Assembly (NCBI GenBank): GCA_021794385.1
Contig: JAJYQY010000098.1
Span: 1 to 35,060, forward strand
From: Pseudomonadota bacterium
GTDB lineage: Bacteria; Pseudomonadota; Gammaproteobacteria; Acidithiobacillales; Acidithiobacillaceae
Reading direction: 5' to 3'
DNA length: 35,060 nucleotides
Shown here: piece by piece, positions 19,751-27,360 of the stretch
How the letters are laid out: each line of letters begins with the position of its first letter
How positions within the stretch are numbered: position 1 is the stretch's first letter
Position numbers and translations under genes: made by a program
The notes under the pieces: model-generated
Seen by the model: the letters and a program-made list of their open reading frames with translations, nothing else
Databases searched by the model: none
Told to the model about the DNA's origin: nothing

Positions 19751-20089
19751 TTACACGGCTTCGTCGCCCTCTTCGCCGGTCCGGATACGGATCACCCGGT
19801 CGACATGGGTGACGAAGATCTTGCCATCACCGATCTTGCCCGTACGCGCCGCCGTCTCGATCACCTCCACCGCGCGGTCGGCGAGATCGTCGGATACCAC
19901 CACTTCCAGCTTGAGTTTCGGCAAAAAATCCACCACATACTCGGCACCACGGTAGAGCTCGGTGTGTCCCTTCTGCCGCCCAAAGCCCTTGACCTCGGTG
20001 ACGGTCATGCCGGCAAGGCCCATTTCCTGCAATGCCTCACGGACGTCATCGAGCTTGAAGGGCTTGATGATGGCTTCGATTTTTTTCAT
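19751..20089 (-). CDS. glnB: Nitrogen regulatory protein P-II (GlnB-type)
   Basis: [59 protein letters not shown]-loop RGAEY with Tyr51; GDGKIFV. Confidence 0.96.
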
Positions 20090-21738
20090 GGTAGAACTCC
20101 TTCTGCTTCAGGGCCTGAGCCCCATGGGGTATAACCGTTGGTAATAGGATAACGCCGGTCCTTGCCGAAGGCGCGCGGACTGATGCGCACCCCGGGGGCG
20201 GCCTGGCGGCGCTTATACTCGGCGCGATCGATGAGGCGCAGGACCCGGGTGACCGTCTCCGGAGCAAAGCCCTGGGCAATGATCTCTGCCGCCCCCCGGT
20301 CATGCTCCACATAGGCAGCGATGATAGGGTCCAGGATCTCGTAGGGCGGCAGGCTATCCTGGTCACGCTGATTGGGCGCCAACTCCGCGGAAGGCGCGCG
20401 GGTCAGGACCCGTTCAGGGATCACCGGAGCGATGCCGTTGCGGTAGCGCGCGAGTTGGTAAACCAAGGTCTTGGGGCAGTCCTTGATGATCGCGAAACCA
20501 CCCGCCATGTCTCCATATAGGGTAGCATAACCGACGGCGATCTCGCTCTTGTTCCCCGTGGTGAGGAGCAAGTGGCCGAACTTGTTGGAATAGGCCATGA
20601 GCAAGGCGGCGCGGATGCGCGCCTGGAGGTTCTCTTCGGTGGTATCCGTGGGTAGTCCGGCGAAAAGGGGGGCCAGGGTATCCAGGTAAGCCGTAAAAAG
20701 ATTGTCTATGGACACCACGTCCGTGCGCACACCCAGGCGCCGCGCCTCTTCCTGGGCATCTTCCACACTCATGGCAGCAGTGTAGCGGGAGGGCATGATG
20801 AGGGCGTGGACCCGCTCCGGCCCCAAGGCATCCACCGCCACGGCCAAGGTCAGGGCCGAATCCACTCCGCCGGAAAGGCCCAGGATCACGCCGGAAAATC
20901 CATTCTTTTCTGTGTAATCCCGTACACCCAGACGCAGCACCTGATAGACTTCCTCCACTTCATCCAGGAGGGGGGCGGGTGCCTGTCCCGGTACCAGGCG
21001 AAGGGCCGCCGCCTCTTTGTGGATGTCGAGGAGCGCCAGATCCTCTCGGCACGGCACGGAACGCAGAACGACCAGTCCGTCGTGGTCCACGGCAAAGGAC
21101 TGGCCGTCAAAGACCAATTCATCCTGACCACCCACCAGGTTCACGTAAACCATGGGAAGGCGCAGTTGACGCGCGAGGGCCCCCGCAACATCGTCTTCGC
21201 GCTGGCGCTGTTTGCCGACGTGATAGGGGGAAGCGTTCAATATCAGGAGGATCTCCGCCCCCTCGGCCTGGGCAGCTTGAGCCGCCGCCGGCCCCCACCA
21301 CACGTCTTCGCAGACGACCACGCCGCAGCGCAGCCCGGCACATGCGAAGACCAGAGGCCGGGTACCCGGCGTGAAGTAACGCATTTCGTCAAAAACGTCG
21401 TAATTGGGCAGGCAGTGCTTGTGATAGGTGCTTTCCACCCTGCCGCCACGCAACAGGCTGGCGCTGTTATAGAGCCGTTGCTCCACCCGCTGGGGATGGC
21501 CCACCAGTACCGGCAGCGGCGCTGCTCCGGCCAGCCTCTGCAACTGGGCGTCGCAAGTGGCCAGGAAATCATCGCGCAACAAGAGATCTTCGGGCGGATA
21601 GCCGCTCAAGGCCAATTCGGGGGTAATGAGCAGATCGGCCCCCTCGGCCTGCGCTTTGTGGGCCTCTCGCAGCAGGAGGCCGGCGTTGCCGGCGATATCC
21701 CCTACCCGGCAGTTCACTTGGGCGAGCGCGATCCGCAT
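20086..21738 (-). CDS. nadE: Glutamine-dependent NAD+ synthetase (nitrilase + synthetase domains)
   Basis: N-terminal nitrilase domain [18 protein letters not shown]...[18 protein letters not shown]-terminal [44 protein letters not shown]. Confidence 0.96.
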
Positions 21739-24130: not shown

Positions 24131-25426
24131 TCAAATGCGTGCCATCAAGGCTTGGGCAAAGTCCGTCGTGCTGAGAGCGGGCACATCGCCGCGCAGTACG
24201 GCCAGGTCGCCGGTGACCTGGCCGACAGCAATGGCGCCATTCATGGCCGTCACCACCCGCGCCGCCGCCTCCTGCCAGCCCAGATACTCCAGCATCATGA
24301 CGGCCGAGAGGATCAGCGAACTGGGGTTGGCCTTGCCCTGCCCGGCAATATCCGGGGCCGTGCCGTGGGTGGCCTCGAAAATGGCATGGGTATCCGAGAG
24401 ATTGGCACCGGGGGCCATGCCAATGCCACCCACCTCCGCTGCGAGGGCATCGGAGATGTAGTCGCCGTTGAGATTCAGGGTGGCCACCACGTCATAGGCC
24501 TCGGGGCGCAGGAGGATCTGCTGCAGGAAGTTGTCGGCAATGACGTCCTTGACGATCACCTTGCCCGCTGCCACCGCCGCTGCCTCGGCCGCATCCGCCG
24601 CCCCTTTGCCCTCGGCCTTGGCGATGGCGGACTTCTGCTGCCAGGTAAAGACCTGTCCGGCAAATTCCCGCTCGGCCAGGGCATAACCCCAGTCACGGAA
24701 GGCGCCTTCGGTGAACTTCATGATGTTGCCCTTGTGTACCAGCGCCACCGATTTGCGCCCGTGGGCCAGGGCGTAGGCAATGGCGCGGCGGATGAGGCGC
24801 TCCGACCCTTCCCGGGAAACGGGCTTGATGCCAAAGGCGGAAGATGCGGGAAAACGGATCTTGCGCACGCCCATCTCATCCTGGAGAAAACGCAGGAGTT
24901 TCTCCGCCTCGGGGCTACCGGCCGGCCACTCGATGCCGGCATAGATATCTTCGGCATTCTCCCGAAAGATCACCATATCCACCCGCTCGGGATAGCAGAT
25001 GGGGCTGGGCGTACCGGCGTAATAACGCACCGGCCGCTGGCAAACGTAGAGATCGAGGTCCTGGCGCATGGCCACATTCAGGCTGCGCATCCCCCCCCCT
25101 ACGGGGGTCTCCAGGGGTCCCTTGATGGCCACCTTGAACTCCTGGATGGCGGCCATAGTCTCGGCGGGCAAATACTGCCCCTCGCCGTACAGGGTGCAGG
25201 CCTTCTGCCCGGCATAGATTTCCATCCAGGCGATCTGCCGTTGGCCGCCGTAGGCGGCAGCCACGGCCTTGTCCACCACCGCGCGCATGGCCGGGGTCAC
25301 ATCGCCGCCGATGCCGTCCCCCTCGATGAAGGGAATGATGGGCCGCGCCGGGGTCTCTATCCGACCATTTTCCACCCGCACCGCGTTTGCGCCATTACCA
25401 GGAACCTGAATATGCGTCCAGTTCAT
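24131..25426 (-). CDS. icd: Isocitrate dehydrogenase (E. coli Icd-like type I, predicted NAD+-dependent)
   Basis: [22 protein letters not shown]...[12 protein letters not shown]...[35 protein letters not shown]. Confidence 0.95.
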
Positions 25427-27360
25427 GACGCCGCCTCCAGTTGTTCCCCCGCCCAGGACAGGGCGCCCCCCTTACGGATCAACTCCAGATCCCGCGCATT
25501 GGCCAGTTGGGGCATGACCGCAAAGTCGATACCCCGGGTCTCATTGTGCAGGGTCAAGGCCTGGCCCAGGGTCAGGGCGTCGAGATCCAGACGCAGGCGA
25601 TCCCCCATCTGCACCCGCGCATAATCAGCGGCATCGACGAAGGTCAGGGGCAGGATGCCAAAGTTGATGAGATTGGCCAGATGGATGCGGGCGAAGGACT
25701 GCACCAGCACGGCCCGCACCCCCAGATAGCGCGGGGCCAGGGCGGCGTGTTCGCGGCTGGAGCCCTGACCGTAATTATGACCAGCGACGATGAAACCGCC
25801 GCCGGCGGCCTTGGCCCGGGCCGGAAAGCCCTCGTCCACCACATGAAAGACAAACTCGGAAATGGCCGGCAGGTTGGAGCGCAGGGGCAGGACTTTGGCG
25901 CCGGCGGGCATGATGTGGTCGGTAGTGATGTCATCGCCCAGATGAATGAGCACTTCCCCTTCCAGCACCTGCGGCACCGCCGTTGCCACGGGCAGTTTGG
26001 CGATATTGGGGCCGCGGATGATCTCCACCCCCGCGCCGGATGGCGGTGGGGCGATGATCATGCGGTCATCGACATGGTAGTGAGTCGGCGCGGGAACGGT
26101 GATCCTGCTCATCCCCAGATCACGAGGATCGGTGATCTCCCCGGTCAGCGCGCAAGCGGCACAGGTCTCGGGGCTGGCAAGGTAGACGGAGGCGTTTTTG
26201 GTGCCGGAACGCCCGTAAAAATTGCGGTTGAAGGAACGGATGGACACCCCCTCGGAAGGCGGCGCAAAACCCATGCCGATGCAGGGTCCGCAGGCCGACT
26301 CCAGGAGGCGCGCCCCGGCGGCGATGAAATCCAGCAGACCGCCGTCGTGGGTAATCATCTCCATGACCTGGCGGGAGCCGGGAGAGACCCCCAGCCCCAC
26401 GCCTGCGGCCACGGTCCGCCCCTTGAGCATGGCCGCCACGGTCATGAGATCGACATAAGAGGAGTTGGTACAGGAACCGATGGCCACCTGGGCGACCTTG
26501 GTCCCTGCCACCTCGCGCACGGTCTTGACGTTGTCGGGGCTGTGCGGGCAGGCGATGAGGGGTTCCAGGGTGCTCAGATCAATGTCCAGCACCTCGTCAT
26601 AGTGGGCGTCGTCGTCCGCCACCCATTCGCTCCAGTCCTTCTCCCGACCCTGGGCCGCCAGATATTCGCGGGTGATGGCGTCGGCAGGAAAAACACTGGT
26701 GGTCGCCCCCAGTTCCGCGCCCATATTGGTGATGGTGGCCCGTTCGGGGGTACTCAAGGTGGCCACCCCGGCCCCGAAATACTCGAAGATTTTGCCGACA
26801 CCGCCCTTGACGGTCTTGCGCCGCAAGACCTCCAGGATGATGTCCTTGGCAGTGACAAAGGGCTGCAACGTCCCCTGCAGGCGGACGCCGATGACCTGCG
26901 GCATATTGAGGTTGAAGGGCAGACCACCCATGGCCAGGGCGATGTCCAGGCCCCCGGCGCCAATGGCCAGCATCCCCGCCCCGCCCGAAGTCGGGGTGTG
27001 GGAGTCGGAACCGAGCAGGGTGCCCCCGGGCCGCGAAAAGCGCTCCAGGTGTACCTGATGGCAGATGCCGTTGCCCGGCCGCGAGAAGTAAATGCCGTAA
27101 CGCGCCGCAAAGGTCTGCAGGAAACGGTGGTCGTCGGGGTTTTCAAAGCCGGTCTGCAGCATGTTGTGATCCACATAGGACACCGACAACTGCGTCCGCA
27201 CCCGCGGCAGCCCCAGGGCCTCGAACTGCAGATAGGCCATGGTGCCGGTGGCATCCTGGGTGAGCGTCTGGTCGATGCGAATGGCAATGGGGCTGCCCGC
27301 CTCTAGCGTGCCGCTGACCAGATGCGCCGCGATGATCTTTTGGGTGACATTCATGCCCAT
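25423..27360 (-). CDS. Aconitate hydratase
   Basis: [17 protein letters not shown]...[23 protein letters not shown]...[12 protein letters not shown]...ACGPCIGMG...[19 protein letters not shown]. Start could also be 27354. Confidence 0.95.

What the first reader, a model, noticed from the sequence alone, without database searches (positions are those of the whole stretch)
19751..27360. Single operon links aconitase, NAD-type Icd, SucCD, glutamine-dependent NAD synthetase and P-II
Seen: acn-icd-sucC-orf-sucD-nadE-glnB, all minus strand, with 4-nt ATGA overlaps (acn/icd, orf/sucD, nadE/glnB) or near-zero gaps. Established: P-II senses 2-oxoglutarate, the Icd product; a P-II protein (GlnZ) has been reported to relieve NAD+ inhibition of NadE2 in Azospirillum. 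Inference: the operon could form a homeostatic module in which Icd makes 2-OG while consuming NAD+, GlnB reads 2-OG, and GlnB tunes NadE to restore NAD+.
Basis: partly seen in the sequence, partly recalled or inferred. Interest (0 to 1): 0.72.

Follow-up and report, generated by a model that had tools for sequence, protein, structure and literature searches.

The report
TCA–NAD–nitrogen-sensor operon of acidophilic autotrophs

Summary
The Icd carries NAD-type cofactor residues, NadE is of the glutamine-dependent dimeric type, GlnB is E. coli-like. All seven genes keep this order in every complete region examined (19) from both families of the window's order (nearest named relative: Acidithiobacillus sulfuriphilus). 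Outside the order, sucC-sucD-nadE-glnB is a common gammaproteobacterial block; the acn-icd extension and a small membrane-protein gene wedged between sucC and sucD were seen only inside it.

The PII-NadE link is published (Santos et al. 2020, PMC7196632: 1300 PII-nadE islands; PII relieves NAD+ inhibition of NadE2). That paper also shows that 2-oxoglutarate and uridylylation prevent the complex, so the proposed loop (Icd makes 2-OG, GlnB then boosts NadE to restore NAD+) has the wrong sign.

Better reading: an anabolic operon of an incomplete TCA cycle. 2-OG dehydrogenase E1 was found in none of 24 genomes of the order, so 2-OG is made chiefly for nitrogen assimilation, and PII releases NadE when nitrogen is plentiful. 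The small order-specific ORF is the only part without known relatives. No interaction or transcript was tested.

The parts
27430..27435 (-). -35-like hexamer TTGGCG of a conserved promoter-like element upstream of acn
   Evidence: TTGGCG-N17-NATNAT found 68-87 nt upstream of acn in the window and 14 of 19 relatives; at most 4 of 2000 Markov shuffles per sequence. Pattern chosen after seeing the alignment.
27407..27412 (-). -10-like hexamer GATGAT, 17-nt spacer
25423..27360 (-). acn, aconitate hydratase (645 aa, PRK07229 / TIGR01342 type)
   Evidence: Pfam PF00330 + PF00694; NCBIfam NF005558 971 bits, cut-off 612
24131..25426 (-). icd, type I isocitrate dehydrogenase with NAD-type cofactor residues (431 aa)
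   Evidence: best PDB hit 2D4[13 protein letters not shown] as in engineered NAD-specific E. coli IDH 1ISO
22957..24120 (-). sucC, succinyl-CoA synthetase beta (387 aa)
   Evidence: PF08442 + PF00549; NF001913 554 bits
22608..22952 (-). orf, 114-aa helical protein with a hydrophobic C-terminal helix (predicted membrane anchor), order-specific
   Evidence: homologues in 26 of 30 other Acidithiobacillales genomes searched and in 0 of 365 class genomes outside that order; dN/dS 0.10-0.29; no Pfam or NCBIfam family above cut-off
21739..22611 (-). sucD, succinyl-CoA synthetase alpha (290 aa)
   Evidence: TIGR01019 467 bits, cut-off 353
20086..21738 (-). nadE, glutamine-dependent NAD synthetase, dimeric NadE2-Gln type (550 aa)
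   Evidence: CN_hydrolase + NAD_synthase; NF010588 762 bits, cut-off 479; best PDB hits 4F4H, 5KHA, far above the M. tuberculosis-type 680-aa enzyme 3DLA
19751..20089 (-). glnB, PII signal protein (112 aa)
   Evidence: PF00543; ungapped to E. coli GlnB 1PIL with intact T-loop including Tyr51 and the Gln39/Lys58/Lys90/Arg101/Arg103 positions

Best explanation
This is the anabolic C/N-branch operon of an obligate autotroph with an incomplete ('horseshoe') TCA cycle. Aconitase and NAD-linked Icd make 2-oxoglutarate as the end product of the oxidative arm, for glutamate and glutamine synthesis (no 2-OG dehydrogenase E1 was found, so 2-OG cannot be burnt by that route). SucCD supplies succinyl-CoA for biosynthesis. 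GlnB, made from the same message, reads 2-OG, ATP and ADP, and glutamine through GlnD. When nitrogen is plentiful (2-OG low, PII not uridylylated) GlnB binds NadE and relieves its inhibition by NAD+; when 2-OG is high it lets go and NAD synthesis is held back. Shown here: gene content, order, conservation, protein types, missing OGDH E1, presence of GlnD. Inferred from published work on homologues: the PII-NadE complex and its sign. Inferred only: one transcript, and the direction of SucCD.
For: Gene order and junctions; conservation across both families of the order; the sucC-sucD-nadE-glnB core also common outside the order; OGDH E1 (TIGR00239) over cut-off in 0 of 24 Acidithiobacillales genomes but in 9 of 11 other class genomes, in line with PMC2621215 and PMC5037610; NAD-type Icd, a type reported in prokaryotes that lack OGDH (PMC5397045); NadE2-type NadE; canonical GlnB; GlnD in the window's genome; PII-NadE2 biochemistry and its sign. 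A conserved promoter-like element lies before acn. The scan found no minus-strand promoter-like site inside the cluster and fewer terminator-like sites than in shuffles (2 found, mean 6.3). NadE tails of unrelated sequence mostly end in an overlap with glnB: 16 of 20 relatives, plus the window.
Against: No transcript or interaction data for this organism. The nearest relative, A. sulfuriphilus, has nadE ending 32 nt before glnB, so the 4-nt overlap is not essential. In the second family (G029, G030) several gaps are 43-221 nt, so separate promoters are possible there. The window's genome is only 72% complete, so absences rest on its relatives. A. brasilense GlnB was weaker than GlnZ on NadE2.
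Confidence: 0.66

Rival explanations
1. Plain accretion: an ancestral sucC-sucD-nadE-glnB block was joined by acn-icd for co-expression with growth, and the cluster has no regulatory logic beyond shared dosage.
For: sucD sits just upstream of nadE in 27 of 40 regions sampled outside the order, and sucC-sucD-nadE-glnB is complete in about 16, with no acn-icd. One other lineage (G150) has icd, an orf and mdh in front of the same block.
Against: Does not explain why nadE and glnB stay together across phyla (1300 islands, PMC7196632), nor the retained nadE/glnB overlap despite unrelated NadE tails.
Confidence: 0.2
2. One reading: Icd consumes NAD+ and makes 2-OG, GlnB senses 2-OG and stimulates NadE to restore NAD+.
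For: All parts are present and adjacent.
Against: 2-OG blocks PII-NadE2 complex formation and uridylylated PII does not act. Icd converts NAD+ to NADH and does not deplete the pool.
Confidence: 0.05
3. Two or more transcription units: acn-icd and sucC-glnB (or nadE-glnB) are separately controlled.
For: Gaps of 68-221 nt between several genes in the second family; a simple consensus scan cannot exclude unusual promoters inside coding sequence.
Against: Overlaps or gaps of at most 10 nt at all six junctions in the window; the only conserved promoter-like element found lies before acn, though conservation was examined only there.
Confidence: 0.09

Closest known systems
PII-nadE genomic islands / PII-NadE2-Gln regulation (Santos et al. 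2020, J Biol Chem, PMC7196632)
   Same: glnB directly downstream of a glutamine-dependent, dimeric-type nadE; canonical PII; GlnD present
   Different: Here the pair ends a longer operon with acn, icd, sucCD and a small membrane-protein gene; no biochemistry exists for these proteins
Gammaproteobacterial sucC-sucD-nadE-glnB block (seen in about 16 of 40 sampled regions here)
   Same: Same four genes, order and strand, often with bamD-rluD-yfiH next door
   Different: No acn-icd in front, no orf between sucC and sucD, looser spacing
Type I NAD-dependent isocitrate dehydrogenase of Acidithiobacillus thiooxidans (PDB 2D4V)
   Same: Direct homologue with identical NAD-specificity motif
   Different: Nothing notable
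Biosynthetic horseshoe (incomplete TCA cycle) of obligate chemolithoautotrophs (PMC2621215, PMC5037610)
   Same: No OGDH E1; aconitase, Icd and SucCD retained
   Different: The operon linkage to nadE-glnB was not mentioned in the passages read

Membership tests
PII-nadE island (Santos et al. 2020) | glnB adjacent to nadE, same strand | tested here: met
   4-nt overlap, window 20086-20089; adjacent in 20 of 20 relatives
PII-nadE island (Santos et al. 2020) | NadE with N-terminal glutaminase domain, dimeric NadE2 type | tested here: met
   PF00795 + PF02540; NF010588 over cut-off while the 677-aa family NF002730 is far below its own; 4F4H best. Oligomeric state itself not measured
PII-nadE island (Santos et al. 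2020) | physical PII-NadE complex blocked by 2-OG and by uridylylation | not testable with these tools
   needs purified proteins
PII-nadE island (Santos et al. 2020) | NadE feedback-inhibited by NAD+ | not testable with these tools
   needs enzyme assay
Canonical proteobacterial PII (GlnB) | T-loop with Tyr51 and effector-site residues; GlnD present | tested here: met
   ungapped alignment to 1PIL; GlnD in own genome 788 bits, cut-off 519
NAD-dependent type I isocitrate dehydrogenase | Asp-Ile...Ala in place of Lys344-Tyr345...Val351 | tested here: met
   [12 protein letters not shown], identical to 2D4V and matching the engineered 1ISO motif
Horseshoe TCA cycle of obligate autotrophs | no 2-oxoglutarate dehydrogenase E1 | tested here: met
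   0 of 24 genomes of the order over cut-off; only weak partial hits. The window's own genome is 72% complete
Single polycistronic operon | one transcript across all junctions | not testable with these tools
   spacing, and a conserved element before acn, are consistent with it

The most novel reading that the evidence does not exclude
The 114-aa orf, confined to the Acidithiobacillales and translationally wedged between sucC and sucD, is a tail-anchored scaffold that places succinyl-CoA synthetase (perhaps with Icd or NadE) at the inner membrane, near the uphill electron flow that makes NADH in these cells.
Probability: 0.12. Interest if true: 0.55.

Novelty: new variant of a known kind. Interest (0 to 1): 0.34.

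Why it matters
PII control of NAD synthesis has been shown in A. brasilense, H. seropedicae and a cyanobacterium. Here the maker of 2-OG, the sensor of 2-OG and the NAD-synthesis target probably share one message in an autotroph that lacks OGDH E1, so this is a clean natural system for testing how 2-OG sets the NAD pool. In the window's genus the operon GlnB is the only PII found. The order-specific small ORF gives a defined target: a possible accessory protein of succinyl-CoA synthetase.

Tried and rejected
Rejected the 128-aa orf start (overlaps sucC; the ATG at 22952 fits homologues). Treated the DUF2730/DUF6779 hits of the orf as coiled-coil similarity (below cut-off). AlphaFold on 19 orf homologues gave mean pLDDT 57.8, all helices, so no fold search was run. 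Sigma-54 (NtrC-type) sites: loose matches scattered and not conserved upstream of acn, none in the window. Rfam: only the two tRNAs, no riboswitch. The default promoter scan missed the conserved element because it scores below its threshold (against 62). An orf alignment was too variable for a collection scan, so one sequence was used. Literature searches found no description of this operon, but most subscription journals are not in the library; the 2002 FEMS paper on the A. thiooxidans Icd could not be read.

Full report
WHAT IS THERE. The window carries acn-icd-sucC-orf-sucD-nadE-glnB on the minus strand. Junctions are -4, +10, +4, -4, 0 and -4 nt. The convergent neighbour downstream is a bamD-like gene and the divergent neighbour upstream a SulP-type sulfate permease. 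The small orf is 114 aa from 22952.

WHERE IT COMES FROM. The closest named relative is Acidithiobacillus sulfuriphilus CJ-2 (orf 94% identical). Its locus is the same contig as that of the same-genus genome G001.

PROTEIN TYPES. Icd is the NAD type: the best solved structure is 2D4V, named as the A. thiooxidans NAD-IDH in PMC4813160. The specificity motif [12 protein letters not shown] matches it and the engineered E. coli enzyme 1ISO, whereas wild type has APKYAGQDKVNP; the meaning of these residues is given in PMC5397045. NadE is glutamine-dependent and closest to 4F4H and 5KHA; the B. thailandensis enzyme lies in the dimeric cluster of PMC7196632, and that 4F4H is this enzyme is from memory. 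GlnB aligns without gaps to E. coli GlnB, T-loop tyrosine included. GlnD is in the same genome.

CONSERVATION. In 20 regions from two families of the order, all complete ones (19) have the seven genes in the same order and strand; the twentieth starts inside icd. In the window's family the junctions are nearly all within -14 to +10 nt; an apparent 189-nt icd-sucC gap in G015 reflects a frame break in icd. In the other family some gaps are 43-221 nt. NadE tails beyond about residue 538 are unrelated in sequence, yet 16 of 20 relatives end overlapping glnB. This suggests selection for translational coupling, though A. sulfuriphilus itself stops 32 nt short.

OUTSIDE THE ORDER. In 40 nadE regions from other families of the class (20 sampled evenly, 20 picked for high NadE similarity and so biased), sucD lies within about 2 kb upstream of nadE in 27, and sucC-sucD-nadE-glnB is complete in about 16. 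acn was found in none; icd in one, G150, which has icd-orf-mdh-sucC-sucD-nadE-glnB with an icd that lacks the Asp-Ile motif. So the core is old and widespread, and the acn-icd extension is, in this sample, the order's own.

THE ORF. Homologues were found in 26 of 30 other genomes of the order (three of the four without are 61-85% complete) and in none of 365 class genomes outside it. dN/dS is 0.10-0.29, so it is a real gene. It has a conserved helical N-terminal part (invariant Tyr-x-x-Arg-Gly-Ala), a likely coiled coil and a hydrophobic C-terminal helix. No family is known.

METABOLIC CONTEXT. OGDH E1 is over cut-off in 0 of 24 genomes of the order but in 9 of 11 other class genomes, as reported for A. 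ferrooxidans and Thermithiobacillus. Icd therefore makes 2-OG mainly for nitrogen assimilation (inference). In A. sulfuriphilus (99% complete) and in the window's genome (72% complete) the operon glnB is the only PII gene found, whereas other genera of the order have two to seven; A. sulfuriphilus still has three ammonium transporter genes.

REGULATION. A promoter-like element TTGGCG-N17-NATNAT lies 68-87 nt before acn in the window and 14 of 19 relatives. The scan found no minus-strand promoter-like site inside the cluster, and terminator-like sites were rarer than in shuffles. These are consistent with one transcript but do not prove it.

MECHANISM AND ITS SIGN. Santos et al. 2020 (PMC7196632) showed that PII binds NadE2 and relieves NAD+ inhibition; that 2-OG and uridylylation prevent this in A. 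brasilense; that relief by PII also holds for H. seropedicae and Synechocystis; and that 1300 PII-nadE islands exist. Applied here, GlnB should release NadE under nitrogen plenty. My reading is an anabolic operon in which carbon-skeleton supply, its sensor and NAD synthesis are co-produced, with NAD synthesis held back when 2-OG accumulates.

VERDICT. Observation confirmed; pairing known; feedback idea not supported in its stated direction; the order-wide operon and the small orf are modest novelties.

Noticed in passing
window 22608-22952: Order-specific 114-aa protein with a hydrophobic C-terminal helix inserted between the two subunit genes of succinyl-CoA synthetase; no known family.
   Followed up: partly
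L128 (G150:C4) about 4365-11508, minus strand: A gammaproteobacterial family outside the order has a parallel cluster icd-orf-mdh-sucC-sucD-nadE-glnB, with a 218-aa membrane-like protein between icd and mdh.
   Followed up: partly
L034 (G001:C186); PF00543 search: The window's genus appears to have a single PII gene, the one in this operon, although A. sulfuriphilus has three ammonium transporter genes.
   Followed up: partly
L034, nadE 3' end: A. sulfuriphilus nadE stops at codon 539 where the window reads Trp and continues 12 residues to overlap glnB.
   Followed up: yes
L048 (G015) 7309-8570: icd matches in two overlapping frames near its 3' end: a possible frameshift or assembly error.
   Followed up: no
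window 27407-27435 minus strand: Promoter-like element TTGGCG-N17-GATGAT conserved upstream of acn in most relatives, missed by the default consensus scan.
   Followed up: yes
window 11000-14000: GC drops to about 0.52 against about 0.63 elsewhere, starting next to a tRNA-Glu gene at 10682-10757; could be acquired DNA.
   Followed up: no
L119 and L123 (KUB_Bin07): One metagenome bin holds two versions of the operon region, probably a mixed bin.
   Followed up: no
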